From a virus, in the IMG/VR virus record IMGVR_UViG_3300022602_000075, positions 1 through 64,000 of that record: 64,000 bases of DNA; one strand, written 5' to 3'. Position numbers and translations under genes: made by a program. Shown here piece by piece: positions 32,201 through 64,000 of the stretch (the stretch's first letter is position 1; each line of letters begins with the position of its first letter). The notes under the pieces were generated by a model, which saw only the letters and a list, made by a program, of their open reading frames with translations, made no database searches and was not told the origin of the DNA.

Positions 32201-35200
32201 CAGTATACAGATTTACTAACGGTGGTGCAGAGTACGGTCAAGTATATGGCACATCACCAGTAGCAACTACTGCTACTCGCACAATACTGATTAATGGCTT
32301 TGCTGCAACTATACCTTCTGGTGCTAATGCAGCAGTAGCAGCAAACACTATTAATCAAACTAATATTATCAACATTACTGCTAGTGCAACTAGCGACAAT
32401 AAACTAGTTATTAGTTTAACCAATCCTGCTTTAGCACAGGCTAATGAAAAATTACTAGTGACGGCACTAAACAGTTCAGCATTGACTGAATTAGGAGTTA
32501 ATACATACACTCAAACACAAGTTGTGCTATGCCCACATACAGAAGGGCCAACACAATTTGGTACTGTAGTCAAGTTCAATGAGTCGGGATCATTTGTAGC
32601 CAGTGCACCAGTTGGCACTAGATATGAAGATACGACATTTGATGTTGTAGATTATCCTGATCAGGATACAATCTTTGACAACAATACTACACAATTTATT
32701 GAGTCGTTCCCAAATGCTGGCGCAGTTTACATGTTTGATTATTTGGGTAACTACAACGAAACTCTACAAAATCCTGGATCATTTGTATATGCTCAAAGTG
32801 TAAATGCACCAAATCTAACATACGGTCCTCAGCCGCGTTACGGCACTGCTATTGACTTTGTTAGCAATCGAGTTGTAGTTGGCACACCAAATATGTACAA
32901 TTATGACATTAGTGCAACTACACTAACAGCCGGAGTAACATATACTATTGTATTCGTAGGAACAACAGACTTTACTGCAATTGGTGCTGTTTCGAACACG
33001 GTTGGTGTTACATTCGTTGCTACAGGGCCGGCTTCTGGTTCAGGATTTGCTACTGACGGTGATTTAGTAAGTTATGGTCAAGTAATTTCTTACACTAATT
33101 CTGTTGGTCAACAAGACTGGGAAGTTTACAGACAAACTGCACCAATTGTTGATACTGCAAGAATTGGGTACATGCAGATTTTCAGCGCACAAACTAATAA
33201 CACATTAGTAAACTTAGACTACTTTGATCCATTGCAGGACAAGTTATTAGGTGCAGTAGCAGAAAACATTGATGTTATTTCAAACAATGATCCTGCAAGT
33301 TACAATAATGGAAATGTAACTCAACGTGCATTAGTTTGGGGTAAAGAACATTTAGGCAATATTTGGTTTAATACTTCTAATGTTAGATTCGTAAACTATC
33401 ACCAAGATGATGTAGTATATAACAGTAAGTATTGGGGTGCGGTATTCCCTGGTAGTGATGTTGCAGTATATACTTGGGTAGCAAGCAATAACCCACCTGC
33501 AAACTATCAGGGCCCGGGCACACCATATAACACTAACCTATACACGATAGAAACTATATTAAATGCCTCACAATCAGCAGTACCTGTTTATTACTTCTGG
33601 GTAAGAAACACTAGTATTATCTTTAGTGAACAAGGAAAGACTCTATCTGACACCGTGCTGCAATCATATATCAGCAGTCCTCAAAACTCAGGTATAAGTT
33701 ACATTTCTCCAATACTACCTAATGTATTCTCAGTGTATAATTCACAGCAGTACTTGAACGGTAATGATAGTGTGCTGAATGTGGGTTATGCTACTGGTGT
33801 GACTAACGATCAATATCACACTGAATACTCACTCATTAGAGAAAATTATCCTGATGACTTCTTGCCAGGTTTACCAACTCTAGCAAATCCTACCCCAACA
33901 TTACTATATCAAAAATTATTGTATAGTTTGTCAGGCGTAGACGGAATAGGTCAAGTAGTACCAGATCCGTTCTTGCCAGTAGCAGTGCAATCTGGTGTTG
34001 CAGCACGACCAAGACAAAGTTTCTTCTTAGACAGATTCATAGCACTTCAAAATTACATTGAATTTGCAAACAATGTAATGAGCAAGTATCCTATCACTGA
34101 AATCAGAGAAAATGCTACTTACTTGTATGCTAAAGGTCCGTTCTACGACACATCTAATTATTGGGAGTTTATAAACTGGTGGGCACCTGGCTATGATAAT
34201 TCTATCAGATCATCTACAGTAGTACCTTTCTACGCAGATTTGTCAACTTTAAGCGTTGCACCAGGTACTATTGTAAAAGTACAATCTAACGGTGCAGGTA
34301 AATCAGAGTGGTATATCTTAGTAGCTGGAAACGTTTGGAATCGCATAGGGTTACAAAACGGCACAATTCAATTCAAGTCTAGCCTTTGGAATTACAAGGA
34401 TGCAGGATTTGGTTGGGGTAATAACTTCTTTGATACTGCGTCATTCGACACGTATCCTAGTGAAGAAACTTATTGGATAGCAAGAGCATTAACTGAACAG
34501 ATTTATACTAACGAATTGTTGGCTTACAGAAATAATAGTTTGATCTTATTGTTCCAGTATATTCAAAGCGAATCTGTATCTTCGCAAAACTATCTTACTT
34601 GGTTGAACAAGACTTCATTAGTAGATGTTTCACACAACATCAGACAATTGCTTCCTTATGAAAACTATCAGTCTGACAATCAAGATTTCTTAGCTGGATA
34701 CTTAGGAGAAGCATTACCTTACCACGTATTCATTAAAGAGTTTACATATGTATACACTGGTTCTAACACATGGGCCGGTAATGTAATCGACTTTGATTTA
34801 CCAGCACAATATAACACTACAATTGATCAGTTTGTATCACCTCAATTGGTATACAGTAATCCTGATAATGTTTATACATACTCACCAACGAGTCTAATTT
34901 GGCAGCAACCTGAGTACTATCAGTGGTTTACTAATTATGGAATTAGTCTGACAGGTGAAACCAACTACTTGATCGGTGAAATAACTGCTTATTTGGGATT
35001 AGGATCTTCGGTTATTGCAGTAACAAATGCTTCAGGATTCCCATTAAATGGTGTAATCATGATTGGTGAAGAAAAGATTGCATACTCTACTGTAAACCGT
35101 GCAAATAATACTTTAACCAACTTAGTAAGAGGTTACGGTGGTACTACTGTTAGCGTTCACTTCCCTGGCGAAAACATTTATATTGACTTGCCAGCAGTTC

Positions 35201-38200
35201 TAGTATTGAACGGTGGCAGAGGGTACACTAATCCACCTAAAGTAACTGCTTATATTGATACTTCAATTTATCCAGCACCTTCAGTACCTGCTCAATTAGA
35301 AGCAGTTATGAGTTTAGACTCGGTAGTTTCAGTAAATGTTATCGATCCAGGTAATGGATATGCAGTACTCCCACAAATCATTATAGATTACGCTGAGCAA
35401 ATTGTATTTGCAAGCACAAATGTAAATGTACTGTTTAGTACTATTCAGATTCCTACACCTCTCTTACAAACTGGAGACTTAGTAAAATACGAAATGTCTC
35501 CAAACGGACAGGCTATTGGTGGAGTTGAAAACAACCAATGGTACTACATAAACGTACTACAAAGCGCGCCTGCTGTTGTTGTAGCACTTTACACAACTTA
35601 CTTAGATGCAGTAAGTGATACGAACAGAGTATTCTTCTATAATCAAGGCTCGGGAACTGGTCATACTCTGAATTTAGGCGCAAAAGCATCTGCTGTTTCT
35701 ACAGCCGCGCCAATCAGAGAAAACAATATAACATTGAAGTTTGACAGAACTAGTTATAATTCTCAAGTATCAGAATGGACTCCTAATGCATTTTATGGTG
35801 CGTTCTTTACTGGGGATGCATTAAGTCAGTTACAAACTTCAAGTTCTACGCTGCCATTAAGTAGCACTCAGCCTGATATCAATTCTATATTAACTAGCGC
35901 ACAAGGCTGTGTATTTGAAATCGTAGACACTGGGAACATTCAGCAAGTTGAATGGTCTTCTTTTGTACGCACTGTGTCTGAAACTATAGCCTCAACAAAT
36001 GCAATTAGATTAATTCTAAGCAGCAGTACGCTAGAAAATGCTTCAGGTTCTACAGTTGGCATGGTTGAAGGAATGCCGGTACAGTTTAACGGTTTTGTTG
36101 GTTCAAGCGGTATTGTACCAAACACTGTGTACTATGTGAAAGAAGTATTAAGTCTTACAGACTTTACTATTTCAGCAACTTCAGGCGGCAGCACGCTTTC
36201 ATTGAGCAATCAAGTAATAACTGGTGCTGGATTAAATTGCTTAGTTGCACAAGTAACTAATACTGCAACACTGACTATGAACTATCCTGGCATAAGAACT
36301 GCTACTTCGGTCACTGCTAACAGTATTGCAAAACGTGGTTACATAACTGTACCGTTGAATTCAATTGGTACAGGTGGCACAAAGGGTATGTATTCTGGAT
36401 TACCTGTATTCTTTGTAGGGAATGTATTTGGCGGAGTAGTAGCAAATCAAGCATACTATGTCACTACGGTACTAGATAAGCAAAATTTCACAATTTCCAC
36501 TAGCGCAGACCCATACACGGTACAAGTAGAAGCAACTAATAGCAGTACCAATTATGTAACTTTGAATAGTACAACTGGACTTTCAGTTAATGATCCTATT
36601 GTTATTAACGAAATGGTTGTTGAAGGGCAAGCAGCAACTAGTTTTGGTAACATCGTTCCTTCTACAATTTACTATGTAAGTCAAATAATCGATGGTTTTA
36701 ACATAACGATTTCTACTGATTATAATGGTAGTACATTTGTGCTGTCTACAGTTTCATCCACTACTACAGTTACTGCTGGTTCTTTTGTAACAGGAGTTAC
36801 TTATACTATTCTAGATTTAGGAACTACTGATTTTACTTTGATTGGTGCAGCATCTAATACTATTGGAGTAGTATTTGTCGCAACAGGAGCAGGAACTGGT
36901 ACAGGTACTGCAACTTGCCGTTCTTTTGCAACTCTAGTAAGTCAAGCAAATACTGCACTTCTGACTACTTCTATTGGTGACATGACAATCAACTTGTCGC
37001 TACCAGTAAGTCCCGGACAAGTTAATGGTCAGTTGTTTACATTATACAAAACATCACAAGAATATTACCCAATTACATATACAGTTTCTAACGAATTAAC
37101 TGGCTCAATTGTTGCAACTATTGCAGGGGTTAATTATGCTGCTATATCTGCTACATATGGCACAGCAAATTTCTATGTAAACATGCCATTAAGAGTAAGT
37201 CACAATATTGGTAACTTGGTAACAGCAACTACTTACTATGTGACTAGCATTGGTGCAATAACAGTAGAAGTAACAGCAACTGCATCTTCTACAAATAGAC
37301 TTACTTGCAACGATACTTCTGTACTCTACGCTAACATGCCAATCGTCTTTAGTGGTACAGGGTTAGGTGGAATCACAATTAGTCAAACATATTATGTAAA
37401 AACAATAATAGATTCAACACACTTTACTATAAGCACTACACCGAGCGGTACTGTATTAACTCTTACCAGTGACACTGGTTCTATGACAGGCACTGGAGAT
37501 GCGTATATAACACTATCGACTTCGTTGGGAGGTGGCAACGTTTCGTTATCAAGTGACTATGGCCCAGTTACATATACACAGACACCTGTCACTCTGCCTG
37601 ATATAGCAGTTAATTACTTAGTAGGTGGCTACTCTGTAACTATCGTAGCCGGGGGGCAAGGAATGGCTACAACTAATGTACTAACAGTAAGCGGTACTGA
37701 AGTAGGTGGCGTATCCCCTGCCAATGACGTTACTATTGAAGTGAATGGAGTAGATAGTCAAGGATCTATAGTAAGTTTAACAGTCACGGGAACAGTACCT
37801 GCTGATTCACAAAGCAAGTATTACTTAAAAGTAACAGGAACAAATACATTTGAAGTGTATGCTGATCCGTTAATGGCAGTACCTGTAACAGGAATTGGAT
37901 TCCCATACACGGGAGTAAAATCAACTACTGCAACTACAGTTACTGCTTCCAATGACAGAGTTACTGTAGCAGATTCTACAATATTTGCAGTAAATGATTC
38001 AGTAGTATTCACTGGAGAAGTTTTCACTACAGATATTGTATTGGGTCAGACTTATTATATTAAGGCAAAACCAACATCAACTACTGTAACTATTTCTACT
38101 CTGCCTGGGGGTACTACATTAGATATAACTGCAAATGCATCTGGTTCTATGACTATGGCTGCTTTGGGTTCGTTTGCGTTCTTGTATGAACCATTCTATT

Positions 38201-41200
38201 TTAACCCAAGCATTGTTAAGTTCAGCAATCAACTGTATCGCTGCATAGTTAGCAATAATGATTCAGAATTTGTTTATGGCAAGTGGGAACTATTAGATTC
38301 GGGTGATCGTAGAATCAACGCACTAGACAGAATTGTTGGATACTATAAGCCTACAGTCAATATGCCTAGTTTCACGTACCATGAGACTTCACCGCTTCAG
38401 CCAGGAGTTTCAAGTGTTGACTTCTCACAATTATTGACTGGTACTACTTACCCTAACAGCACATACTTAGGTAATCCGTTCCAACCATCGCAACAGTTAC
38501 CGCTGAATGTAAAACTGCAAGATCAACCATTTATTGCAACTCTGCCAGCAGTATATGATGTACAAGGCTCAGCATTTACTTCAGGATTCGGCCCAGAAGA
38601 ACTAGTACCTGGTATTGTATCTGACAATCTATCTATGATAGTTAATACGCTACCGGGTAGTAATTGGGATCCTGCTCAATATGCACATGACGGTTATAAT
38701 GTAGTATCTCTACAATTTACACCTGCTTATTCAACCCAAACTGTTTACAGTTTTGATAGAGCAGTTCAAGTGCCCGCACAAGTAGCAGTATTTGTGATTA
38801 ATGGTTCTACTCAATTGTCTACTAGCATCTATAATAGCATAGATTATACTGTTGATTGGGTAAACAGTACTGTAATATTGAATAGTCCTCTAGCAGCATC
38901 TAATACTCTAAGAATAGATGTGTACGAAGTAGGCAATGGATACCAATTAGTCAAGTCAAGTACTAAGCGTGACCCTATTATACTAGATCCAGTTACTGGA
39001 TTCAATGGAATTCCATTAGATTGCAACTATGCCGGTAATATCAATAACGGCAACGGAATAGTAAGACCGGGTACGGCACCTATACAAACCAATGCTACTG
39101 CTACTATAAGCGCAACAAATTCTATTGTAGTAGACAATGTATCAAGTTTCATATTAAACAGTCCAATTACATTCCAAGGTAGCACTTTTGGAAACATTGT
39201 AGCAGGTACTACTTATTATGTAAAAACAATCAGCACTGTAACAGACAGTATTACGGTGTCTACAACATATGATATTTCAACCGGTATAGCAGGATCTACA
39301 TTCCACTTAAGTGACGCGGTGGGTAGTATGGTCTGCATCATCGAAACTGGCAACGGAGTATTCTGGAGTCCTCCAGTCGTATATCACAATGGTAATAAAC
39401 TAGTTTTGGGAACTATAAATTTTGCGATTTCAACTTCAGCAAGCACAGGATACATAACATGTAACTCTACTTCTGGATTAATAGCAAACACACCTATTAA
39501 GTTTAGCAATACAATGTTTGGTGGCGTAACTCCACAAACAACTTATTACATTTCTCATATTTTGGATTCTTATAAATTTAGTATATCTGCTACTCCTGGT
39601 GGAGCACCATTAACATTGACCGATGCAGTTGGTGGAGCATCGTTTATTACAAACGACTATGCTGCTGCGCTTTCGGCAGACGGTTTTACAGCCAAATTAG
39701 TGTTTGCTTCACTTTATGATCCTTCAGTAGATTATATTACCTATACACTGTTTGGAGAAACAGTTCCTCAATATAGCTATACTATACCTGAAACTCAAGT
39801 CTTTTCAAATATCACAGGATCTTCATTTACTTTAACTAATTATGTAGTTGAAGATAATCCTACTAACGCTATAGTAGAAGTAAATGGCGTAAGACAAACG
39901 GCTGCACAGTACACTATCAGCAGTTTATCAAACACCATAACATTCAATACTCCTCCACCGATCGGAAGTACAGTTGCAGTAACATCATATAACTTGACTG
40001 ATAATCAATACTTTAATACTCAATATGGTATTAGTGGTTCTTCTCTGTCTGCATCTACTACAGTTATAGTATCTGCTACAACAAACACAGTATCAACTTA
40101 TGACCAAAACGGCACAGTTGGATATGACACTCAATTGTACGCAGAAAATCTAAACACGCTAACACTAGATACTGGATATAACACTTCAGTGTTCACAATA
40201 GGTCAAGTGATTGTGTTCTCTGCTCCAACTATCGGCGGTATAGTAGCCGGTAAAAACTATTACATAGCACAAATAATAGATTCTTCTACGTTTACTATTT
40301 CGGAACTATTAGGTGGCGCACCAATTGCGGTAACTACTGCTACGGGAACAATGACTGGAAATCTAAACGGCATCACAGTAGCCGCGATTACTAATATCAG
40401 TAATGTCATATCAGATCCTCTTGCTACTACAACAGTAACTGGAACATCTTCTATAACTAACTTGATTACTTGTGCTTCAACTACTAACTTTGCTTTAAAT
40501 CAAACTGTGCAGTTTGAGGCTAGTGTTATTTCCGCTACATCAATTGTTATAGGGGCAACATATAGAATTGAATCATTAGGTACAACTGATTTTACAACTA
40601 TAGGTGCTGCTACAAATGCGGTTGGGGTAATCTTTATTGCTACAGGAGTGGGTACTGGTACAGGCACTGCACTATTGGCTACATTTGGCAACATAGATTT
40701 GTTGGGCCAAGTGTACTTTGTAAAAACTAAAGACAGTTCTACAACATTCTCTATTTCGGATCAAGCAGGTAACACAATTACATTAGGTACTGATTCCGGT
40801 TCGATAAAAGCAATAGTCGGTGGACAACCTACTATTAGAATAACAACTGGCGTACTTAATACTTTTGAAGACAATACTCTTGTTAGAATTGATGGAACAT
40901 TGGGTTCTACACAATTAAATAACCAGACGTTCTACGCTAAAGTAATTACAACTACTCAGTTTGACATTTACTCACAACCATACAGTCCTGCGTTTGGGGC
41001 TATTAACTCTCCAGTTACTAATGTATCTACTTGGCTTGGCGGTGGATATGCATGGAGAGATGGGCTATTCACTATAATTGATACCAAAGCAACTGCGACC
41101 GCACCGAATGGACTAATCACTGTTAATTCGACTACAGAGTTAATATTGGGTACCCCAGTATACTTCACTGTTTCGGGAACAGCACTTGGTTCAACCATTA

Positions 41201-42147
41201 TGGGAGGATTAATCGCAGGCAGAGAGTACTTTGTAAATCAAATTGTTCCTGGAACTGGTTTCTATGTCACCGAAACTAGAGGTGGCAACAATCTAGCACT
41301 TACTTCTGATACAGGTGGTGTCAACGTAACACAATGGCAACAAACTAATGTTGACCGTCTATGGGTAACAGTAAATGGGTATCGAGTTCCTTCTTCATCA
41401 CTGCGTTTGAATCCAGGAAATGATCTAAGCATACTAGCAAGTATTAATCCAGGTGACGAAGTAATTATTACTAGTATGGTGCCTTCGGCTACCCCAAATC
41501 AAATGACTTACTACATGAATGTAAATCAACTTGGGGTACCGGTAGTTTACAATGCTAACATGTCTAAAACTTGGTTAGTACGTGGATTAGAAAGTTTAGA
41601 TACAGTAATTTACGTCAACGATGTATCACAAATTACAGAAACTATTGTCCAAAACAATATTGCACCTGCACCAGTTGGAGGAGTAATCAGTATAGGATTG
41701 AATGTAGACAAGAGAACACTAACTAGCGTAACAGTTTACAACAACACAACTGGTCAAACTGTTCCAAGTAGCGCATATAGCGTTCAAATAGTTGACGCAT
41801 CTCCTACTCTGCTAATAACAGGGGGAGTCACTACAGGAAACTACTTGACGATAACTTCAATTCAGGGTAACTTAATCTATATTAACGGAGAACAAATTGT
41901 ATTTGGAGTAGTAGATTTTGCCACTAACACACTTACCCAATTGCAACGTGGAGCAAATGGCACTGCTACACAGACATTAATCGCTCCGTATACTCCTGTA
42001 CTAGGATTGCTGCCCGGCGATCGATTATCTGATACTTACTATAATCAAACTTGGAATCCAATCCCAGGAATCTACAATCTTACTGAGGGCGACCCGCTAC
42101 AGATAGCAGATACTGCCCCTGCTACTTTCTTAAATACGGGGAAATAA
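23299..42147 (+). CDS. giant 6282-residue baseplate/fibre protein (gp7 position)
   Basis: A single uninterrupted frame of 18.8 kb. The first about 150 residues (TLDFLPEIFQTPSNQQFLSA to FNQYYWLPEGPP) form a head domain I have seen in proteins next to gp6. Parts seen by eye: six approximately 50-residue repeats with DGxxWTTP (610-927); long unassigned parts (930-2600); an FG-GAP-like propeller with phrases such as VVIGAPD and IIVGAPFEL (about 2607-3200); four copies of a TTDFT module (2746, 3207, 4492, 5746); and about ten copies of a beta domain with YYVK (4253-6004). In T4 gp7 (1032 residues) follows gp6; here a wedge protein seems fused to a long fibre-like body. It ends 18 nt before the next small gene. 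Base composition is like its neighbours and no stop or frameshift breaks it. Confidence 0.8.
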   Translation: MAKVIRTLDFLPEIFQTPSNQQFLSATLDQLVNPPDLQKLQGFVGNRFGYGVNANDYYVTEPDATRTNYQLDPGVVFTKPGTSTATDFISYPGILNAINAAGGLANNNSRLFNSQFYSWDSFTNLDPLINFNQYYWLPEGPPAVTVAAATVFSAEDYVVTAEANGYNISVLGSDTGSINPTITLLRGGVYNFYVNQSTQFWIQGLPGVQGIDPTNPNQSVRQIYGVGNNGAETGIVTFTVPPANAQQQYILPGNNLVSLVSNIPYENLNGQLVSTIKNIDGVTSLNGMTVMFYDTGTPVNTNFYKIAYVGDPNNPTISLSVVSAIPVNQNINVVYGNTYGGLTFYLDNSNNIEQLPYISAPLDTLYYQDGSDPTRVGMIRLIESNVTNQLDINTQVLGQKNFTSTNGVVFTNGLKVQFNGDVVPSSYLTGQYYVQGVGTAIELLPVSDFIVSEPFTGDVLTPWDSTNWDIGNFSDTLYIPTYPDYITIARNSINRNPWSRSNRWFHIDVINATAQYNNDPSIATTFARQDNKAARPIIEFYPNLELFNYGSVGVSAVDFIDFRTTDCLNLVAGQPVYYPDVDVYTAYNANVFNPPVPTVGFTTPSPMGSINVANMRAVAISPTGVYVAVGYGTANSALYSVSTDGINWTTPASMNGVVVPAASMNSVTVNSAGLFVAVGGAGYPYYATSTDGINWTTPALMNGSSVYTQMRSVTVNSSGLFVAVGSDGSTYPLYATSTDGTNWTTPAIMNGSTSFAAMQAVTVNSSGLFVAVGYDGNQYPVYATSVDGSTWTTPTPMNGTTNPVRMLAVTVNSSGLFVAIGTDINTGYPVYSTSTTGSNWITPVAMTGSASGIRMTAVSTNYYGLFVAVGYDQNTVDGVAYRPVYSTSLDGSTWTAPAFMNNSIDPANIYGVAVDTIGGFVAVGDSGVSGVVSKSVIQLPSTSTTVTVPVASVTGTLEVGMYINDSQNILPPNTQITSITNHSGVLYIEVSWPNPTVLSGIIGVSLVADPSSNTNYALFPGARVIFAADPAQKAKIFVVNFSTVTQGSPPVITLAEAPDGQIVAGNVAAVIRGYNNQGYSFWYNGTAWVQAQQKITNNQAPLFDVFDSNGISFGNPAYYVGTSFKGSRLFSYAIGTGLADKVLGFPLSYSSVNNIGDISFDVSFNSDTFTYVNSSSPVTENVNTGFVYNTNSLTDHTRLLGWQTAVGPSVQYQVFEFNYVRNYVVPNNAFLLDVAPVASDVEPWPVLEVYVNNVLQPSTNYTVTTTSDSTTVVINIPNQITNTLVQILVLSDQVSKYAFYQIPINLSNNPFNTDITVTNVGDIRRQYASIFNNCPNTTGHVFGSNNYRDLGNLVPYGNVIIQNSASLALPATFLRNLDFNIFDALAYNSKKYVEYKNLIVYTVNSYPFDQRYDPAYVLNTAIDLITAAKDSSQSFFWSDMIPAKAPYASNAYTFKSNLDRTVYPLTQTYNFKTANYNGVLVYLSRTISGLTITKQLVINQDYTVSATAPSLEITIQLLAGDVVTINEYNQTYGSYVPNTPTKLGLYPAFIPEVVLDTGYQQPTYFIKGHDGSYNKLYGDYIPETDTLVDFRDQALLEFEKRVYNNLKLSNTIPIQAYEVTPGFFRTTDYSYDEWLEIYTPGFLNWVGQNKLDYKQQYYNSYNQYTWNYKKTTNKVDNSVIDIGYWRGVYSYFYDTTTPNTTPWEMLGYKNEPSWWTDRYGPAPYTSNNLVLWGDLAAGLDWNNGNPVVIPKAVRNGLLKVLPVDSQGNLISPFQSVVANYYTPSFEANWVVGDDGPVEFSYRRSSSWPFDLMRILALTKPAEFFNLGAWVDNYKYSEEFNQYLVGGRSHLVPNEIPVYGSGTPVTSYINWVVDYRKQYGVDATTTITTLINNLDVRLVYRLAGFSDQNLLNFYIQSTNPNSNNSSLLIPNESYQVLLYSNPPYSVLQYSSVIVQITNQGQYAVFGNSQNSAYFSTLVPKNDGQTSTTKVDSLSVTVPRNFTSTEEMVPYGTIFQTPQAVAIFLASYGAYLEANGATYEYQLGALPINWNQMISEFLYWVQIGWQPGAITTLNPAAYELTINRENQIVQPLSVQGANFVLNQNLYPIKNADLSIIRNGTQFSVTPLNQGDTISYGQFNLSNFENACVFNNTTMFGDTICDLVTGLRQNRLYLRGAKTASWNGTYTASGFIINQNNVVQWDPAAKYTKGQIVKYKNQYWVAQDIIQPSETFQQKYWLLSNYNMIQTGLLPNSSTNSLDSTYYYSNEQSALNTDTNLLCYSLIGYRQRDYAAIADLTDVTQVNVYQNLIKTKGSTNAVSAFKGATLPHGGIDYNVYENWAILSSNFGGVLNNNFVQFKLNAAELSGNPFIVGLTDGVSTTGVEQEVPLYSLYNYNYSSPPTSPNVLPTISQYVPSTLFPDAGYVNFNDVKMSSYFYSQLPTAVNQQGVIIPLTSFYVGDYVWLANYLNQWNVYTPISLGQVVAVTNNLNNTCTVTFSQMHNLKQYDLIAITNFNSAVNGYYTVNNVVDNYQITILLSLTSSSRQLIGQGVGMYLSPQRVTTPSQITNLPLDSSEFVKNTVWVDTNNDGGWAVYQKNINYQLEEEITQPLNDSLSFGSSVVYNSNLGGYLIGDPNLGNVYRYDLNQGTGGYDLFQTLTHAASFGSSMVNEGSIYVISQPTGTPTVYIYTINNSVLSDQLISYQAGITAPSGVTNWGSALALSGDTNWLYISDTGHNKVYVYNKQNILLTAGSFVTGETYTINSIGTTDFTAVGAIENKVGITFIATGAGSGTGTATQSTYKSSAIIDATGFLTTGDNFGYSIATDYYGDTVVIGAPDVDYSTDYQNWGSAYVYERSVQNFIAPYTYPLNSNPAPSFQLAWSPSAVQVSVNSVAVQASEYSISGSTLTYTGSLTAGDIINVSGNVFTKVQTLTTQNNPQVGVQFGLSVDTTAHAGEIIVGAPFELTQQLVEGAVYRFTNGGAEYGQVYGTSPVATTATRTILINGFAATIPSGANAAVAANTINQTNIINITASATSDNKLVISLTNPALAQANEKLLVTALNSSALTELGVNTYTQTQVVLCPHTEGPTQFGTVVKFNESGSFVASAPVGTRYEDTTFDVVDYPDQDTIFDNNTTQFIESFPNAGAVYMFDYLGNYNETLQNPGSFVYAQSVNAPNLTYGPQPRYGTAIDFVSNRVVVGTPNMYNYDISATTLTAGVTYTIVFVGTTDFTAIGAVSNTVGVTFVATGPASGSGFATDGDLVSYGQVISYTNSVGQQDWEVYRQTAPIVDTARIGYMQIFSAQTNNTLVNLDYFDPLQDKLLGAVAENIDVISNNDPASYNNGNVTQRALVWGKEHLGNIWFNTSNVRFVNYHQDDVVYNSKYWGAVFPGSDVAVYTWVASNNPPANYQGPGTPYNTNLYTIETILNASQSAVPVYYFWVRNTSIIFSEQGKTLSDTVLQSYISSPQNSGISYISPILPNVFSVYNSQQYLNGNDSVLNVGYATGVTNDQYHTEYSLIRENYPDDFLPGLPTLANPTPTLLYQKLLYSLSGVDGIGQVVPDPFLPVAVQSGVAARPRQSFFLDRFIALQNYIEFANNVMSKYPITEIRENATYLYAKGPFYDTSNYWEFINWWAPGYDNSIRSSTVVPFYADLSTLSVAPGTIVKVQSNGAGKSEWYILVAGNVWNRIGLQNGTIQFKSSLWNYKDAGFGWGNNFFDTASFDTYPSEETYWIARALTEQIYTNELLAYRNNSLILLFQYIQSESVSSQNYLTWLNKTSLVDVSHNIRQLLPYENYQSDNQDFLAGYLGEALPYHVFIKEFTYVYTGSNTWAGNVIDFDLPAQYNTTIDQFVSPQLVYSNPDNVYTYSPTSLIWQQPEYYQWFTNYGISLTGETNYLIGEITAYLGLGSSVIAVTNASGFPLNGVIMIGEEKIAYSTVNRANNTLTNLVRGYGGTTVSVHFPGENIYIDLPAVLVLNGGRGYTNPPKVTAYIDTSIYPAPSVPAQLEAVMSLDSVVSVNVIDPGNGYAVLPQIIIDYAEQIVFASTNVNVLFSTIQIPTPLLQTGDLVKYEMSPNGQAIGGVENNQWYYINVLQSAPAVVVALYTTYLDAVSDTNRVFFYNQGSGTGHTLNLGAKASAVSTAAPIRENNITLKFDRTSYNSQVSEWTPNAFYGAFFTGDALSQLQTSSSTLPLSSTQPDINSILTSAQGCVFEIVDTGNIQQVEWSSFVRTVSETIASTNAIRLILSSSTLENASGSTVGMVEGMPVQFNGFVGSSGIVPNTVYYVKEVLSLTDFTISATSGGSTLSLSNQVITGAGLNCLVAQVTNTATLTMNYPGIRTATSVTANSIAKRGYITVPLNSIGTGGTKGMYSGLPVFFVGNVFGGVVANQAYYVTTVLDKQNFTISTSADPYTVQVEATNSSTNYVTLNSTTGLSVNDPIVINEMVVEGQAATSFGNIVPSTIYYVSQIIDGFNITISTDYNGSTFVLSTVSSTTTVTAGSFVTGVTYTILDLGTTDFTLIGAASNTIGVVFVATGAGTGTGTATCRSFATLVSQANTALLTTSIGDMTINLSLPVSPGQVNGQLFTLYKTSQEYYPITYTVSNELTGSIVATIAGVNYAAISATYGTANFYVNMPLRVSHNIGNLVTATTYYVTSIGAITVEVTATASSTNRLTCNDTSVLYANMPIVFSGTGLGGITISQTYYVKTIIDSTHFTISTTPSGTVLTLTSDTGSMTGTGDAYITLSTSLGGGNVSLSSDYGPVTYTQTPVTLPDIAVNYLVGGYSVTIVAGGQGMATTNVLTVSGTEVGGVSPANDVTIEVNGVDSQGSIVSLTVTGTVPADSQSKYYLKVTGTNTFEVYADPLMAVPVTGIGFPYTGVKSTTATTVTASNDRVTVADSTIFAVNDSVVFTGEVFTTDIVLGQTYYIKAKPTSTTVTISTLPGGTTLDITANASGSMTMAALGSFAFLYEPFYFNPSIVKFSNQLYRCIVSNNDSEFVYGKWELLDSGDRRINALDRIVGYYKPTVNMPSFTYHETSPLQPGVSSVDFSQLLTGTTYPNSTYLGNPFQPSQQLPLNVKLQDQPFIATLPAVYDVQGSAFTSGFGPEELVPGIVSDNLSMIVNTLPGSNWDPAQYAHDGYNVVSLQFTPAYSTQTVYSFDRAVQVPAQVAVFVINGSTQLSTSIYNSIDYTVDWVNSTVILNSPLAASNTLRIDVYEVGNGYQLVKSSTKRDPIILDPVTGFNGIPLDCNYAGNINNGNGIVRPGTAPIQTNATATISATNSIVVDNVSSFILNSPITFQGSTFGNIVAGTTYYVKTISTVTDSITVSTTYDISTGIAGSTFHLSDAVGSMVCIIETGNGVFWSPPVVYHNGNKLVLGTINFAISTSASTGYITCNSTSGLIANTPIKFSNTMFGGVTPQTTYYISHILDSYKFSISATPGGAPLTLTDAVGGASFITNDYAAALSADGFTAKLVFASLYDPSVDYITYTLFGETVPQYSYTIPETQVFSNITGSSFTLTNYVVEDNPTNAIVEVNGVRQTAAQYTISSLSNTITFNTPPPIGSTVAVTSYNLTDNQYFNTQYGISGSSLSASTTVIVSATTNTVSTYDQNGTVGYDTQLYAENLNTLTLDTGYNTSVFTIGQVIVFSAPTIGGIVAGKNYYIAQIIDSSTFTISELLGGAPIAVTTATGTMTGNLNGITVAAITNISNVISDPLATTTVTGTSSITNLITCASTTNFALNQTVQFEASVISATSIVIGATYRIESLGTTDFTTIGAATNAVGVIFIATGVGTGTGTALLATFGNIDLLGQVYFVKTKDSSTTFSISDQAGNTITLGTDSGSIKAIVGGQPTIRITTGVLNTFEDNTLVRIDGTLGSTQLNNQTFYAKVITTTQFDIYSQPYSPAFGAINSPVTNVSTWLGGGYAWRDGLFTIIDTKATATAPNGLITVNSTTELILGTPVYFTVSGTALGSTIMGGLIAGREYFVNQIVPGTGFYVTETRGGNNLALTSDTGGVNVTQWQQTNVDRLWVTVNGYRVPSSSLRLNPGNDLSILASINPGDEVIITSMVPSATPNQMTYYMNVNQLGVPVVYNANMSKTWLVRGLESLDTVIYVNDVSQITETIVQNNIAPAPVGGVISIGLNVDKRTLTSVTVYNNTTGQTVPSSAYSVQIVDASPTLLITGGVTTGNYLTITSIQGNLIYINGEQIVFGVVDFATNTLTQLQRGANGTATQTLIAPYTPVLGLLPGDRLSDTYYNQTWNPIPGIYNLTEGDPLQIADTAPATFLNTGK
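25130..26090 (+). repeat. six tandem DGxxWTTP repeats in the giant protein
   Basis: Six coding repeats of about 160 nt, each carrying SxDGxxWTTPxxMNG after a VAVGY-like strand. The pattern resembles BNR/Kelch-type propeller blades, so they may form one six-bladed propeller. Confidence 0.75.
31535..40680 (+). repeat. four dispersed copies of a TTDFT/ATGxGTGTG module
   Basis: Copies at about 31535-31680, 32917-33060, 36772-36920 and 40535-40680 encode a 48-residue unit with TYTI, GTTDFT, IGA, NTVGVxFxATG and a Gly/Thr end. The DNA has diverged while the protein is well kept. Copies 1 and 2 lie within or at the edge of the FG-GAP-like region, copies 3 and 4 within the YYVK array, so the unit looks like a movable insert. 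Confidence 0.75.
36055..41310 (+). repeat. array of about ten YYVK beta domains
   Basis: Roughly ten units follow the pattern PVxFxG, FGGIxxGxTYYVK, FTISxxxGGxxLxLT and a final GSM. Spacing is irregular because other sequence, including TTDFT modules, is inserted between them. They likely form a shaft of similar small beta folds. Confidence 0.7.
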
Positions 42148-52014: not shown

Positions 52015-52066
52015 AGATTCATAAGTTGATGTTGTTGATTCACTCTTACTAAAGGTACATACTTAT

Positions 52067-53167
52067 ATGGCGACTGCGATTTCTGATAACAACACCATTA
52101 CGAGCGTTCAAGCCCGTAAGGCTCTTTTGAAGGCGTTCAAGGCAAAGCGACCCGTGTTTCTTTGGGGTACGATGGGTATCGGCAAGTCTGAGGTAGTCGA
52201 GCAGATTACTGATGAACTTGGCGGTCTTATGATCGATTTGCGTATGGCGCAGATGGAACCCACTGACATTCGTGGTATCCCGTTCTATAACAAGGATATC
52301 AACAAGATGGACTGGGCTGCCCCTGTCGATCTCCCGACTGAGGAACTGGCTTCTCAGTACCCGATTGTTGTCTTGTTCTTGGATGAGATGAATTCGGCTC
52401 CCCCTGCTGTTCAGGCAGCGGGCTATCAGTTGATTCTCAACCGTCGCGTTGGCAAGTACAAGTTGCCCGATAACGTGGTGATCGTTGCTGCTGGTAATCG
52501 TGACACCGACAAGGGCGTTACTTATCGCATGCCGATGCCGCTTGCTAATCGGTTCTTGCATCTTGAAATGCGGGCTGACTTCAATGCTTGGCAGGCATGG
52601 GCTGTCACTAAGGGCATTCACAAGGACGTGGTTGGTTATCTGTCGTTCGCTAAGCAGGACCTGCACGACTTCGATGCTAAGTCGGCAAATCGTGCGTTCG
52701 CTACCCCGCGTACTTGGTGCTTTGTGAGTGACTTGCTCAATGATGAGGACACCGATGCCGATACTCTGCACAATCTGATTGCGGGTGCTATCGGTGACGG
52801 TCTTGCTCTCAAGTTCATGAAGCATCGTCAGTTTTCGGGCAAGATGCCCAACCCCGAGGATATTCTCAAGGGCAAGGTGAAGGATCTTGCAGTCAAGGAA
52901 ATCTCGGCAATGTACTCGCTGACCGTTTCTATGTGCTACGAGTTGCGTGATGCTGTTCAGAACAAGCGGGTGGACATGAAGGAGTTCCATGTCATGGCGT
53001 CGAACTTCTTTACTTACATCATGGCGAACTTTGAGACTGAGTTGGTGATCATGGGTGCTAAGATCGCACTCAAGACTTATCAGTTGCCGATTGAGCCGAC
53101 CCAACTCAAGAACTTTGATCAGTTCCACAAGACTTACGGCAAGTACATCGTTGAGAGTGACAAGTAA
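52067..53167 (+). CDS. MoxR-family AAA+ ATPase
   Basis: 366 residues. Walker A is GTMGIGKS (34-41); Walker B is VVLFLDEMNSAPP with D106/E107; sensor 1 is VVIVAAGNRDTD and an arginine region follows (MPLANRF). DIRGIPFY and QLILNRRVG are MoxR traits. MoxR ATPases work with a VWA protein to remodel or load metal into targets, and the next gene encodes one. Codons end mostly in G or C with much CGT, unlike the AT-ending codons nearby, which suggests different origin or selection for strong expression. A long antisense frame is an artefact of this codon use. Confidence 0.9.
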   Translation: MATAISDNNTITSVQARKALLKAFKAKRPVFLWGTMGIGKSEVVEQITDELGGLMIDLRMAQMEPTDIRGIPFYNKDINKMDWAAPVDLPTEELASQYPIVVLFLDEMNSAPPAVQAAGYQLILNRRVGKYKLPDNVVIVAAGNRDTDKGVTYRMPMPLANRFLHLEMRADFNAWQAWAVTKGIHKDVVGYLSFAKQDLHDFDAKSANRAFATPRTWCFVSDLLNDEDTDADTLHNLIAGAIGDGLALKFMKHRQFSGKMPNPEDILKGKVKDLAVKEISAMYSLTVSMCYELRDAVQNKRVDMKEFHVMASNFFTYIMANFETELVIMGAKIALKTYQLPIEPTQLKNFDQFHKTYGKYIVESDK

Positions 53168-53212: not shown

Positions 53213-53239
53213 ATACTTTCAATACGAACGAGGTGTGGT

Positions 53240-60651: not shown

Positions 60652-61197
60652 ATGGCATCATATGTGTACACAGCGAATTCGTCACCAAACGCATCTGCTA
60701 ATATTCAAACAGACAAGGTAAGAATTGCAACAACTAGTTCCCCGATCCAGCTTGTTGCAAGTTACCCAAATGTTGCAGGTACAGGCACGGTTACTTGCGC
60801 GACCACTTCTCACACAATAACTGGTTCAAGCACCACTTTTACTACGCAATTGAATACAGGTTACTGGATTGGTAACGCTACTGGCGCAACAGTAGGTATC
60901 GTACAAAGTGTAGCGAACAATACAAGTGTCACACTTACTGCTAATGCAGCAGTAGCCATTACAGGTGCTGGATATACAATCAATCCATTTGGTGTTCCGT
61001 ATCTAGTAGCAACCGCAAATAGCACAATCATTCCTGCAAACTCAGTCAATAATAGTTTTATCGTAGGACAAGGAAACATTATATCTTATTTAAATGTTTC
61101 TGGTGCGACAGCAGCACCTTTCTCAATCACTGAATTGGGCGCAAATCATCCAAACACTGGTACAACTGGAGTATTACCTCCACCGGCAATCGCATAA
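60652..61197 (+). CDS. small beta-rich virion protein, unrecognised
   Basis: 181 residues. It is rich in Ala, Thr, Ser, Asn and Val with beta-like alternation (IATTSSPIQLVASYPNVAGT, TVTCATTSHTITGS), no long helices and only one cysteine. Such composition fits a head decoration or fibre protein. The position just before the terminase suggests a head or neck part. The next gene begins 57 nt later. No family recognised. Confidence 0.55.
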   Translation: MASYVYTANSSPNASANIQTDKVRIATTSSPIQLVASYPNVAGTGTVTCATTSHTITGSSTTFTTQLNTGYWIGNATGATVGIVQSVANNTSVTLTANAAVAITGAGYTINPFGVPYLVATANSTIIPANSVNNSFIVGQGNIISYLNVSGATAAPFSITELGANHPNTGTTGVLPPPAIA

Positions 61198-61241
61198 TTG
61201 ACCTACTAAAGATTTAGTTTCTAAGAAGTAGCATCTCAGTT

Positions 61242-61249
61242 ACTAAATA
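61242..61249 (+). promoter_or_regulatory. late promoter ACTAAATA, 5 nt from the terminase ATG
   Basis: Ends 5 nt before the ATG at 61255; no Shine-Dalgarno. Predicted leaderless terminase mRNA. Confidence 0.6.
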
Positions 61250-61254
61250 CTTAT

Positions 61255-64000
61255 ATGAGTAACAAGTCAGGGCAAGGGGCACTAATCAAAAGCCCCTACG
61301 AAAAAACACACTTTGAAACACCTCAACAACTAGATGAGTTTGTAAAGTGCTGCGACCCTGATACCGGTTATCTTTATTTCATGGACAATTTTTTCTTCAT
61401 ACAACATCCTACTAAGGGTGGTATGAACTATCATCCATGGGATTATCAAAAACGTTTAATACACACATATCACAATTACAGATATAGTATATCGCTCATG
61501 CCCAGACAGTCTGGTAAGTGTTTTGGAATAAATACTACAGTTAAAATAAAAAATATTCACACCGGTAAGGTTGAAGAAATAACTATAGGAAAATTTTATG
61601 AACGATTTAGTAACTTGTCTAATTTGCTCAACAGAGATGAAGGAATTGCACTCTCATCTATTCAGAAAACACAATATGACAGTGACCAAATACAAAGAAG
61701 TCTATCCGAATGCACCAACTCGGTGCCAGCAGTTACTGGAAGCACAATCAAAAAGGGTATCGGGTTCTGGAAATCCTGCATACCAACATGGAGGGAAACT
61801 TTCTCCGTTTTCTCCAAAATTTATTCACGGGGATATATCGGAGCGAACTCAAATCAAAGCCGAACAGTCCCGAAAAGAAAATCAATCACATACTACTACT
61901 CTTGCATATTGGATGAAAGTTACGAATCAAGACGAAGAACAAGCGATTCGTATGCTGACAGATCGGCAAACTACTTTTTCTTTGAAGAAATGCTTAGAAA
62001 AATACGGGAAAGCCAATGGGTTGTTAAGATGGCAAGAACGGCAGCAAAAGTGGTCAAAGAATTTCAAAAAACAAAACTATTCAAATGTCTCACAAAAACT
62101 ATTCCATTTAATAATGGAACATTATGCGTCAGATCAAGTATATTTTGCGACCTTGGAACGGTCGGATATGTTAGACTACCAAAACAAGGAATATCGGCTT
62201 TTATTGGATTCAGGCAAGACTGTTCTACCGGATTTCATCAATATAGCAACGAGAAAAATTATAGAATTCGACGGGATTTATTGGCATGGGCAACATATGG
62301 CGAACCCGCAACGGGAACTAGAAAGAGAACAGCAGATTATTCAAAGTGGATACCAGTTACTAAGAGTTGCCGAGGAAAGATACAAGAAAGATCCTCAACA
62401 AGTGCTTCAAGAATGTCTGAACTTTCTGAATCAGTAGAAAGAAAATTTATAGAGTCATACGAAATAACCGATTATGAAATAACCACTGACACAGGATGGA
62501 AACCAATAACACACCTCCATCGTACTATTCCGTACAATGTTTGGGAAATTAAAACTGTAACAGGATTAATTTTGCAATGCGCCGACACTCATATTTTGTT
62601 TGATGGCTCAATGAATCAAGTTTTTGCAAAAGACTTAACTATTGGTTCGCATATTCATACTGTTAACGGAATAGAAAAAATTAAACATATTAGAGAAACA
62701 AATAATATTGAAAATATGTTCGATTTAACTATTAGAGATGAAAATCACAGATTTTATTCAAATGGTATTTTAAGTCATAATTCTACAAGTGCTGCCGGAT
62801 ACTTGTTGTGGTACGCCATGTTCAACCCGGACTCTACAATTCTGATAGCAGCGCACAAGTACACTGGCGCTCAGGAAATCATGCAGCGTATTAGATATGC
62901 TTATGAAAACTGCCCTAACCACATTAAAGCAGGGGTGACAACTTATAACAAAGGCAGTTTAGACTTTGAAAACGGTAGTCGTATTGTTTCGGCAACAACT
63001 ACCGAAAACACAGGTCGTGGTATGTCTATTACGCTTCTTTACTTAGACGAGTTCGCATTCGTAAGACCTACTATTGCTGAACAATTCTGGACTTCTATTA
63101 CACCTACACTATCAACTGGTGGTAAAGCAATCATTACTTCTACACCAAATAGCGATGAAGATCAATTTGCTCTTATTTGGAAGGGTGCTAATAAAACAGA
63201 AGACGAATATGGTAACGTAACAGAAGTTGGCGTAAACGGCTTCAAAGCATACCGTTCACACTGGTCTGAACAGCCCGGCAGAGACGAAAAATGGGCTGAA
63301 GAAATTAGATCACAATTGGGACAAGATCGCTTCAACCGTGAAATGGAATGCGAATTTATCATCGCCGATGAAACACTGATCAATCCAAACACTCTAATTA
63401 TGCTAGAGGGAACAGAACCTTCTAATAGAATGGGTCAAGTTAGATGGTATAAAGAGCCAACCAAAGGAAATTTATATGTAGTAGGGCTAGACCCAAGTTT
63501 AGGTACAGGTGGAGATCCTGCTGCTATAGAGATTTTTGAAGCAAACACTACGACGCAAATTGGTGAATGGAAGCATAACAAGACTAACATTCCCAGTCAA
63601 GTTAAGTTGCTAGCAGAAATAAACAGATATATTGTAGAAAAGACTAACGAACCAAACAATCTATATTATTCACTAGAAAACAACTCTATAGGTGAAGCTG
63701 CGATAGTTTCTCTGAACGAGTACGGTGAAGCCAATATTCCCGGGATATTCATTAGCGAACCGGGCAAAAAGCGCAGGGGTTTTAACACCACACACAAGAA
63801 CAAATTAGCCGCATGCGCTAAGTTTAAAACTCTGCTAGAAAGCAAGAAGTTAAAAGTTTATAGTCGCAGTCTGATATCTGAATTAAAGACTTTTGTGGCT
63901 TCAGGTGGCAGTTATGCCGCTAAAGTAGGCGACACAGACGATCTTATTATGGCTACACTCCTAGTCGTTAGAATTTTACAGCAGTTGGGCGATTATCACG
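61255..64000 (+). CDS. 17: terminase large subunit (gp17-type) interrupted by an intein, partial at right edge
   Basis: Reads without stop from the ATG at 61255 to the window end (915 codons), of which 88 codons are N-extein, 421 intein and the rest C-extein. N-extein: YHPWDYQKRLIHTYHNYRYS then PRQSGK. After the intein comes STSAAGYLLWYAMFNPD; joined they give the Walker A PRQSGKST. Walker B is LLYLDEFAFV; SATTTENTGRGMS is the usual coupling region; the nuclease part starts VVGLDPSLGTGGDPAAIEIF. This motor packages DNA into the head. Splicing is needed for function because the insertion splits the ATP loop. Promoter box 5 nt from the ATG. Confidence 0.95.
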   Translation, partial: MSNKSGQGALIKSPYEKTHFETPQQLDEFVKCCDPDTGYLYFMDNFFFIQHPTKGGMNYHPWDYQKRLIHTYHNYRYSISLMPRQSGKCFGINTTVKIKNIHTGKVEEITIGKFYERFSNLSNLLNRDEGIALSSIQKTQYDSDQIQRSLSECTNSVPAVTGSTIKKGIGFWKSCIPTWRETFSVFSKIYSRGYIGANSNQSRTVPKRKSITYYYSCILDESYESRRRTSDSYADRSANYFFFEEMLRKIRESQWVVKMARTAAKVVKEFQKTKLFKCLTKTIPFNNGTLCVRSSIFCDLGTVGYVRLPKQGISAFIGFRQDCSTGFHQYSNEKNYRIRRDLLAWATYGEPATGTRKRTADYSKWIPVTKSCRGKIQERSSTSASRMSELSESVERKFIESYEITDYEITTDTGWKPITHLHRTIPYNVWEIKTVTGLILQCADTHILFDGSMNQVFAKDLTIGSHIHTVNGIEKIKHIRETNNIENMFDLTIRDENHRFYSNGILSHNSTSAAGYLLWYAMFNPDSTILIAAHKYTGAQEIMQRIRYAYENCPNHIKAGVTTYNKGSLDFENGSRIVSATTTENTGRGMSITLLYLDEFAFVRPTIAEQFWTSITPTLSTGGKAIITSTPNSDEDQFALIWKGANKTEDEYGNVTEVGVNGFKAYRSHWSEQPGRDEKWAEEIRSQLGQDRFNREMECEFIIADETLINPNTLIMLEGTEPSNRMGQVRWYKEPTKGNLYVVGLDPSLGTGGDPAAIEIFEANTTTQIGEWKHNKTNIPSQVKLLAEINRYIVEKTNEPNNLYYSLENNSIGEAAIVSLNEYGEANIPGIFISEPGKKRRGFNTTHKNKLAACAKFKTLLESKKLKVYSRSLISELKTFVASGGSYAAKVGDTDDLIMATLLVVRILQQLGDYH
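61519..62781 (+). other. 421-residue intein in the terminase Walker A loop
   Basis: Starts with C (61519) in CFGINTTVKIKNIHTGKVEE, the block A of inteins, and ends FYSNGILSHN with S as first extein residue, the blocks F/G end (His before the last Asn). Block B (CADTHILF) lies in the C-terminal 115 residues. Only about 36 residues precede the inserted part, so the split between blocks is close to the N-terminus, as in the atypically split terminase inteins (AceL-TerL). The part between residues 27 and 307 is also read in the +1 frame as an endonuclease gene. Confidence 0.9.
61598..62437 (+). CDS. Vsr-like homing endonuclease nested in the +1 frame of the intein
   Basis: 279 residues from the ATG at 61598; AGGA ends 7 nt before it and a frame-2 stop lies at 61586-61588, so this is an independent start. 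A zinc finger (C7, C10, H20, H25: CLICSTEMKELHSHLFRKHN) is followed by a helical region (TKYKEVYPNAP, LEKYGKANGLLRW) and the nuclease TVLPDFINIATRKIIEFDGI, YWHGQ, then LREL-type helix and LLRVAEERY. This type is known from fractured genes with split inteins. The whole gene overlaps the intein frame, which stays open throughout. It ends with TAG at 62435-62437, 25 nt after an in-frame ATG (62413) of the intein frame. Confidence 0.85.
   Translation: MNDLVTCLICSTEMKELHSHLFRKHNMTVTKYKEVYPNAPTRCQQLLEAQSKRVSGSGNPAYQHGGKLSPFSPKFIHGDISERTQIKAEQSRKENQSHTTTLAYWMKVTNQDEEQAIRMLTDRQTTFSLKKCLEKYGKANGLLRWQERQQKWSKNFKKQNYSNVSQKLFHLIMEHYASDQVYFATLERSDMLDYQNKEYRLLLDSGKTVLPDFINIATRKIIEFDGIYWHGQHMANPQRELEREQQIIQSGYQLLRVAEERYKKDPQQVLQECLNFLNQ

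What the first reader, a model, noticed from the sequence alone, without database searches (positions are those of the whole stretch)
61519..62781. Homing endonuclease gene written out of frame inside a continuous intein of the terminase
Seen directly: the terminase frame has no stop across 61255-64000, including the whole of 61598-62437, where a complete Vsr-like endonuclease is encoded in the +1 frame with its own AGGA site. The endonuclease has about 80 codons that start with AA, AG or GA, and about 70 of its 279 codons end in T; a T-ending codon before any of those would make a stop in the intein frame. About 20 stops would be expected by chance (hand count), none occurs. This points to selection to keep the intein frame open. 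Known: in fractured genes (split inteins with a free Vsr-like endonuclease gene between halves) the halves are separate ORFs, and terminase inteins can be split very near the N-terminus. Inference: here the split-type arrangement and the contiguous frame coexist, so the intein may be translated as one 421-residue cis-splicing piece with the nested gene acting as a second message, or be on the way to or from a fractured gene.
Basis: partly seen in the sequence, partly recalled or inferred. Interest (0 to 1): 0.95.

Follow-up and report, generated by a model that had tools for sequence, protein, structure and literature searches.

The report
Out-of-frame homing endonuclease inside an intein
A phage DNA-packaging gene carries a self-excising protein segment, and inside that segment a DNA-cutting gene is written in another reading frame; related phages show that evolution has removed every stop codon from the outer frame, so one stretch of DNA carries both messages.

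Summary
The terminase frame is open from 61255 to the window end, through a 421-codon intein (61519-62781) that contains a complete 279-aa Vsr/I-Bth0305I-like endonuclease gene (61598-62437) in another frame. All 79 junctions where a T would create a stop in the intein frame avoid T. Synonymous shuffling predicts 15.6 stops; this phage's own codon habits give P of about 3e-17.

Relatives show this is selection. Of 123 distinct loci with the full gene between the two intein parts, 10 have 0 stops in that frame and 113 have 17-83; nothing lies between. Open loci have lost the conserved ATG of the split C-half. Endonuclease-deleted relatives (687 and 714 nt, both in frame) keep one continuous intein. 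AlphaFold2 folds residues 1-37 and 300-421 with high confidence; the 262 residues between are disordered, and their sequence is barely conserved beyond having no stops.

Best explanation: a contiguous cis-splicing intein of the AceL/VidaL "atypically split" family, carrying its endonuclease gene dual-coded instead of between split halves. Known relatives are fractured genes (split halves) and the ShiLan domain (hidden HNH, not an intein). I found no report of the combination. Splicing and endonuclease expression are untested.

The parts
61255..61518 (+). TerL N-extein, ending in the Walker A motif (...PRQSGK); the intein sits inside Walker A
   Evidence: translation; Pfam Terminase_6N/6C on the ORF
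61519..61629 (+). Intein N segment (C1 to about residue 37, CFGINTTVKIKNIHTGKVEEITIGKFYERF...)
   Evidence: AlphaFold2 pLDDT about 96; C1, T6 and G24 conserved in contiguous relatives
61587..61590 (+). AGGA ribosome-binding site of the nested gene, written in the codons of the conserved intein motif T-I-G-E/K-F-Y-E
   Evidence: same AGGA(G)-ATG spacing in the open loci listed except L057
61598..62437 (+). Nested homing-endonuclease-like gene, 279 aa, +1 relative to the intein frame; its stop TAG (62435-62437) lies in the codons of the conserved intein motif V-E-R-K-F
   Evidence: Pfam DUF559 and ROS_MUCR above cut-off; Foldseek best hit I-Bth0305I 3r3p
61601..61723 (+). ROS/MUCR-like zinc finger of the endonuclease (aa 2-42)
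   Evidence: PF05443 E 8.5e-7; Ros zinc finger 2jsp also hit by fold
62228..62428 (+). DUF559 / Vsr-like nuclease domain of the endonuclease (aa 211-277)
   Evidence: PF04480 E 4e-7; 3r3p, 1vsr by fold
61630..62415 (+). Stop-free 'shadow' part of the intein frame (intein residues 38-299), disordered linker
   Evidence: 0 stops vs 15.6 expected; pLDDT mostly under 50
62413..62415 (+). ATG that would start a split C-half; a by-product of a conserved endonuclease Cys (TGY), decayed to GTG/TTG in other open loci
62416..62781 (+). Intein C segment (...ADTH block B, ...LSHN block G)
   Evidence: pLDDT about 95; profile hits VidaL 6vgv, gp41-1, CatC
62782..64000 (+). TerL C-extein (+1 residue Ser), cut by the window end
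   Evidence: T4 gp17

Best explanation
This is a contiguous, cis-splicing intein in the Walker A motif of a phage large terminase. Ribosomes read TerL, the intein N segment, a ~262-residue stop-free linker, the intein C segment and the rest of TerL as one chain. The HINT fold assembles from the two ends and removes the intein, linker included. The linker DNA is at the same time a complete Vsr/EDxHD-type endonuclease gene in another frame. It is started internally from an AGGA/ATG written in the intein's own T-I-G-x-F-Y-E codons and ended by a TAG written in its V-E-R-K-F codons. Purifying selection removes T before AA/AG/GA codons so that TerL stays translatable, with little or no selection on the linker's amino-acid sequence. 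The endonuclease presumably makes the element mobile, so the open element is found in several unrelated terminases. Shown by sequence: stop avoidance, its conservation, decay of the C-half start, in-frame loss of the endonuclease, a mosaic transfer, the predicted fold. Inferred: cis-splicing, translation of both frames, endonuclease activity and homing.
For: (1) 0 stops vs 15.6 +- 2.6 by synonymous shuffle; P about 3e-17 by the window's own codon use. (2) 123 distinct loci with the full endonuclease between TerL intein parts: 10 with 0 stops, 113 with 17-83. On the first set of loci, open loci have shuffle z -5.6 to -7.8, stop-bearing loci average -0.2 +- 1.2. (3) Open endonucleases are 37-62% identical between lineages and all lack stops in this frame only. 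(4) Split C-half start: ATG in 31/31 fractured loci, but 5 ATG / 4 GTG / 1 TTG in open loci (Fisher 3e-4); ATT in the endonuclease-less L003. (5) Two different in-frame deletions of the endonuclease leave a continuous intein: 687 nt in L003/L004, 714 nt in L018 vs its sister L019. (6) Contiguous endonuclease-free homologues at the same TerL site in Vibrio phage Kuja (annotated as one CDS) and Salmonella phage 38, among 322 phage records. (7) AlphaFold2: residues 1-37 and 300-421 pLDDT ~95, linker mostly <50; Foldseek best hit VidaL intein. (8) Shadow sequence barely above a no-stop null at deep divergence (z mostly 0-2.5). (9) The open state needs 2 changes on the endonuclease tree but 6 on the C-extein tree.
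Against: No protein, RNA or splicing data. The window itself keeps an ATG (62413) at the C-half start position. Only about 9 open lineages exist, mostly one clade, so loci are not independent and the Fisher value for start codons is optimistic. L057 lacks the AGGA-ATG signal. Trees are 'quick' searches with many weak forks. Endonuclease activity and the EDxHD catalytic residues were not tested. How ~15 stops could be purged step by step is unexplained.
Confidence: 0.87

Rival explanations
1. A fractured gene in disguise: the C-half is made separately from ATG 62413 and splices in trans with an N-part; the open frame is incidental or only keeps ribosomes moving to the C-half start.
For: ATG 62413 is present in the window; 113 relatives with the same gene content are fractured; 29 of 31 doubly overlapping fractured loci have the same phase at both ends.
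Against: No stop ends an N-half here. The C-half start has decayed to GTG/TTG in most open lineages while 31/31 fractured loci have ATG, and is ATT in L003. Incidental openness is excluded statistically.
Confidence: 0.07
2. The insert is removed at RNA level (intron) or skipped by the ribosome (bypassing), so the intein is read without it.
For: T4 gene 60 bypassing and intron-borne endonucleases are precedents (own knowledge).
Against: Neither needs an open frame, yet openness is strongly selected. No group I/II match in Rfam; the only sub-threshold matches are implausible. The insert is almost entirely the endonuclease ORF, leaving no room for a ribozyme.
Confidence: 0.02
3. The shadow peptide is itself a functional protein domain under sequence selection (true two-protein overprinting).
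For: Shadow identity is slightly above null on average, and proline is depleted in all 10 open loci.
Against: At 37-62% endonuclease identity the shadow identity is close to the no-stop null (z mostly 0-2.5); the region is predicted disordered; two natural deletions remove most of it.
Confidence: 0.05
4. Chance, codon bias or assembly error.
For: T-ending codons are somewhat rarer in open endonucleases than in their own terminases.
Against: T is absent only at at-risk junctions (0/79 vs 72/200); the same zero holds in 10 distinct loci from independent samples; near-identical contigs L001 and L002 agree.
Confidence: 0.005

Closest known systems
Fractured genes: split inteins with a free Vsr-like endonuclease gene between the halves (Dassa et al. 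2009, NAR 37:2560; paper not held, from own knowledge and its citation in PMC3229294)
   Same: Same gene content, same TerL intein family, homologous endonuclease, same overlaps at both ends
   Different: There the intein frame has 17-83 stops and the halves are separate ORFs; here the frame is continuous with 0 stops
Atypically split TerL-type inteins: AceL-TerL (own knowledge), VidaL (6vgv), consensus Cat intein (6dsl)
   Same: C part matches VidaL and CatC by sequence and fold; break point close to the N terminus
   Different: Those are trans-splicing; this one is contiguous with a ~262-residue insert at that position
ShiLan domain (Arsenault, Gosselin & Gogarten 2025, PMC11855218)
   Same: Out-of-frame endonuclease in a phage gene whose own frame stays open
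   Different: HNH enzyme, no intein or intron, insert thought to stay in a non-essential methylase; here a Vsr-like enzyme within a HINT intein in an essential terminase, and selection against stops is quantified against stop-bearing relatives
Canonical endonuclease-containing inteins (PI-SceI type)
   Same: Contiguous intein carrying a homing-endonuclease sequence
   Different: Those endonucleases are in frame and fused, and all sit at one conserved (C35) site (PMC6801210); here out of frame and near the intein N terminus
TerL mini-inteins of Ackermannviridae (Salmonella phage Maynard/Mooltan annotation; Vibrio phage Kuja)
   Same: Homologous contiguous intein at the same TerL site
   Different: No nested endonuclease

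Membership tests
Intein (HINT) | Nucleophile at residue 1, terminal His-Asn, Ser/Thr/Cys at +1 | tested here: met
   C1, H420-N421, +1 Ser; C1 and HN invariant among 13 contiguous relatives
Intein (HINT) | HINT fold | tested here: met
   Foldseek hits to 58 chains at E<=1e-3, the 50 listed being intein or BIL chains, VidaL first
Intein (HINT) | Canonical block B TxxH | tested here: inconclusive
   A355-D356-T357-H358 here; A, D and H invariant in the family; T not at the first position
Intein (HINT) | Self-splicing activity | not testable with these tools
   needs expression
Fractured gene | Intein halves encoded by separate ORFs | tested here: not met
   one frame, 0 stops between the halves
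Fractured gene | Free-standing Vsr-like endonuclease gene between the two intein parts | tested here: met
   own SD, start and stop; homologous to endonucleases of 113 stop-bearing loci
Vsr-like / EDxHD homing endonucleases (I-Bth0305I) | Catalytic-domain fold | tested here: met
   3r3p best hit, prob 1.00, E 0.013, TM(target) 0.60-0.63; Vsr 1vsr fifth. E-value modest
Vsr-like / EDxHD homing endonucleases (I-Bth0305I) | EDxHD catalytic residues and cleavage | not tested
   KIIEFDGxYWH block conserved but not mapped onto 3r3p
ShiLan-type hidden endonuclease insert | Out-of-frame endonuclease with open host frame | tested here: met
ShiLan-type hidden endonuclease insert | HNH enzyme, no splicing element | tested here: not met
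   Vsr-like enzyme inside a HINT intein
Group I/II intron | Ribozyme covariance match | tested here: not met
   no Rfam intron match even at E<=1

The most novel reading that the evidence does not exclude
A mobile gene nested inside another mobile element, dual-coded with it: the endonuclease gene (or its remnant) moves as its own unit between inteins of different phages, its start and stop signals are written in conserved intein motifs, and the stop-free shadow frame lets an intein carry an endonuclease at a non-canonical site without splitting. L003 hints at this: a 146-nt tract bounded by the endonuclease gene's ends is identical to L004, while the flanking intein and terminase are of another phage's type.
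Probability: 0.4. Interest if true: 0.88.

Novelty: new variant of a known kind. Interest (0 to 1): 0.8.

Why it matters
It adds a third way for an intein to carry an endonuclease, besides in-frame fusion and gene fracture: out of frame, in a stop-purged register. It bears on an explicit puzzle, why endonuclease domains in inteins always sit at one (C35) site (PMC6801210): here a ~260-residue insert is apparently tolerated near the N terminus, possibly because it is disordered. It links contiguous and split inteins by naturally occurring intermediates (open with gene, open with gene deleted, fractured) and gives a clean natural experiment on overlapping reading frames with over 100 stop-bearing controls. 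A contiguous intein accepting long arbitrary linkers near residue 37 may also be useful in protein engineering. Standard gene callers would probably report only one of the two frames, so the class may be under-recorded.

Tried and rejected
Intron: Rfam over 61000-63200 at E<=1 gave only two implausible sub-threshold matches. Codon bias: the zero is confined to at-risk junctions. Functional shadow peptide: little identity beyond a no-stop null. Third-frame stops looked enriched, but conditioning on the open frame leaves only L068 and L057 above z 3. Genome contigs gave 4 relatives only, none open. The PHROGs library has no family for the endonuclease. A search for more open loci of the L057 type found none. 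Literature searches for an intein with an out-of-frame endonuclease returned only the ShiLan paper as a close precedent.

Full report
WHAT IS THERE. The window is bases 1-64000 of a 72,019-base virus record. TerL starts at ATG 61255 and stays open to the window end. An intein begins at Cys 61519 inside the Walker A motif (PRQSGK|C) and ends at Asn 62781 before Ser. Within it, at 61598-62437, lies a complete 279-aa gene in another frame. Its start is preceded by AGGA at 61587-61590. Pfam finds DUF559 (4e-7) and a ROS/MUCR zinc finger (8.5e-7). AlphaFold2 gives pLDDT 84, and the best PDB match is the I-Bth0305I catalytic domain, with Vsr at lower rank. So it is a Vsr-like homing-endonuclease-type protein with a DNA-binding finger.

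IS IT CHANCE. In the intein frame a stop appears whenever an endonuclease codon ending in T precedes one starting AA, AG or GA. There are 79 such junctions, with T at none; elsewhere T is at 72 of 200. Shuffling synonymous codons gives 15.6 +- 2.6 stops and never fewer than 6 in 20,000 trials. In 13 other gene segments of the window T stands at 38% of such junctions, so the chance of 0/79 is about 3e-17. The other alternative frame shows no depletion.

RELATIVES. [quoted passage not shown] The count of intein-frame stops is sharply two-peaked: 10 loci have 0 and 113 have 17-83. On the first set of loci the shuffle z-score is -5.6 to -7.8 for full-length open loci; stop-bearing loci average -0.2 with sd 1.2. 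The stop-bearing loci are fractured genes, for example L005 with an N-half ending after a 20-nt overlap, then the endonuclease, then a C-half with its own ATG. Open lineages differ from each other by as much as 37-62% identity in the endonuclease, yet none has a stop in this frame.

WHY CONTIGUOUS RATHER THAN SPLIT. Three observations besides the open frame. First, among fractured loci whose C-half start overlaps the endonuclease end, 31 of 31 use ATG; open loci have 5 ATG, 4 GTG, 1 TTG, L063 has TTG at that place, and L003 has ATT. An NTG there is a by-product of a conserved endonuclease Cys codon, and only fractured loci hold it to ATG. Second, natural deletions of the endonuclease stay in frame: 687 nt in L003 and L004 (same junction) and 714 nt in L018 relative to its sister L019. 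Third, contiguous endonuclease-free homologues exist at the same TerL position in Vibrio phage Kuja and Salmonella phage 38, out of 322 phage records matched.

STRUCTURE. The 421-residue intein was modelled with 43 sequences: residues 1-37 and 300-421 reach pLDDT about 95, and 38-299 are mostly below 50. All 50 listed Foldseek matches are intein or intein-like (BIL) chains, with VidaL first at E 5e-10; sequence profiles find VidaL, gp41-1 and the consensus Cat intein. The insert lies just after the first helix, the kind of position where AceL/VidaL-type inteins are split (own knowledge; PMC10189870 describes such atypical splits).

WHAT IS SELECTED. Against a null that resamples synonymous codons while forbidding intein-frame stops, the shadow peptide is scarcely more conserved than expected at deep divergence (z mostly 0-2.5); proline is depleted in all ten open loci. 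So the linker must be translatable, but its sequence hardly matters. Both signals of the nested gene are written in conserved intein codons: AGGA(G)...ATG in T-I-G-E/K-F-Y-E (9 of the 10 open loci listed; L057 differs), and the stop in V-E-R-K-F in most.

MOBILITY AND HISTORY. On the endonuclease tree open loci form one clade of nine plus L057 (2 changes); on the C-extein tree they need 6 changes and on the short C-intein tree 3. The open element therefore follows the endonuclease rather than the terminase, as a mobile element would. L003 is a mosaic: an L023-type terminase and intein holding a 146-nt tract identical to L004, bounded by the endonuclease gene's ends. L057 joins an N-terminal part near the open clade to a C-terminal part of a fractured lineage, yet has no stops in either, so stops were probably purged at least twice or after recombination. 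Among fractured loci overlapping at both ends, 29 of 31 have the same phase as the open ones, so opening needs only stop removal and closing needs only one stop. Which way it went is unresolved; how about 15 stops could be purged gradually is an open question.

AGAINST KNOWN THINGS. It is a member of the HINT inteins by motifs and fold. It is not a fractured gene, since the defining separate halves were tested and not met, but it has the same content. It works like the ShiLan domain (PMC11855218) in hiding an endonuclease out of frame under an open host frame, but that element is HNH and not an intein. In ordinary inteins the endonuclease is in frame, and all are stated to sit at one site (PMC6801210). 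I found no report of an intein with an out-of-frame endonuclease in the library searched, which lacks most subscription papers.

LIMITS. No expression data; metagenomic contigs; about nine open lineages; quick trees; splicing, endonuclease activity and homing are inferred.

Noticed in passing
L071:3643-6444: Downstream of the nested-gene intein, TerL of this phage appears to contain a second intein-like N segment read in frame into a GIY-YIG-like endonuclease; in L005 a similar gene (6492-7493) is a separate ORF between the halves of a second split intein.
   Followed up: no
L023:2810-5776 (also L003), absent from L025: A second contiguous intein (CVGEDTVITVRN...LVSHN) at another TerL site, present in L023 and L003 but absent from the closely related terminase of L025: a recent gain or loss.
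   Followed up: no
L009 (Caulobacter phage Cr30, KF301602.1 94692-102366): A 34%-identical free-standing homologue of the nested endonuclease lies directly upstream of a terL that seems to lack this intein.
   Followed up: partly
L030; L032-L034: Fractured loci in which most of the endonuclease is deleted but the halves remain split by stops, a counterpart to the in-frame deletions of open loci.
   Followed up: partly
window 52049-53128 (-) and 53219-54088 (-): Long antisense ORFs (359 and 289 aa) lie almost fully opposite a phage ATPase gene (phrog_1297) and an HNH endonuclease gene (phrog_1314).
   Followed up: no
window 23299-42147: A single ORF of 6282 codons next to a baseplate wedge gene (19871-23287, phrog_10646).
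   Followed up: no
open loci shadow frame (L068, L079, L063, L057): Proline is depleted in the shadow peptide relative to a no-stop synonymous null (z down to -3.5; negative in all ten open loci).
   Followed up: partly
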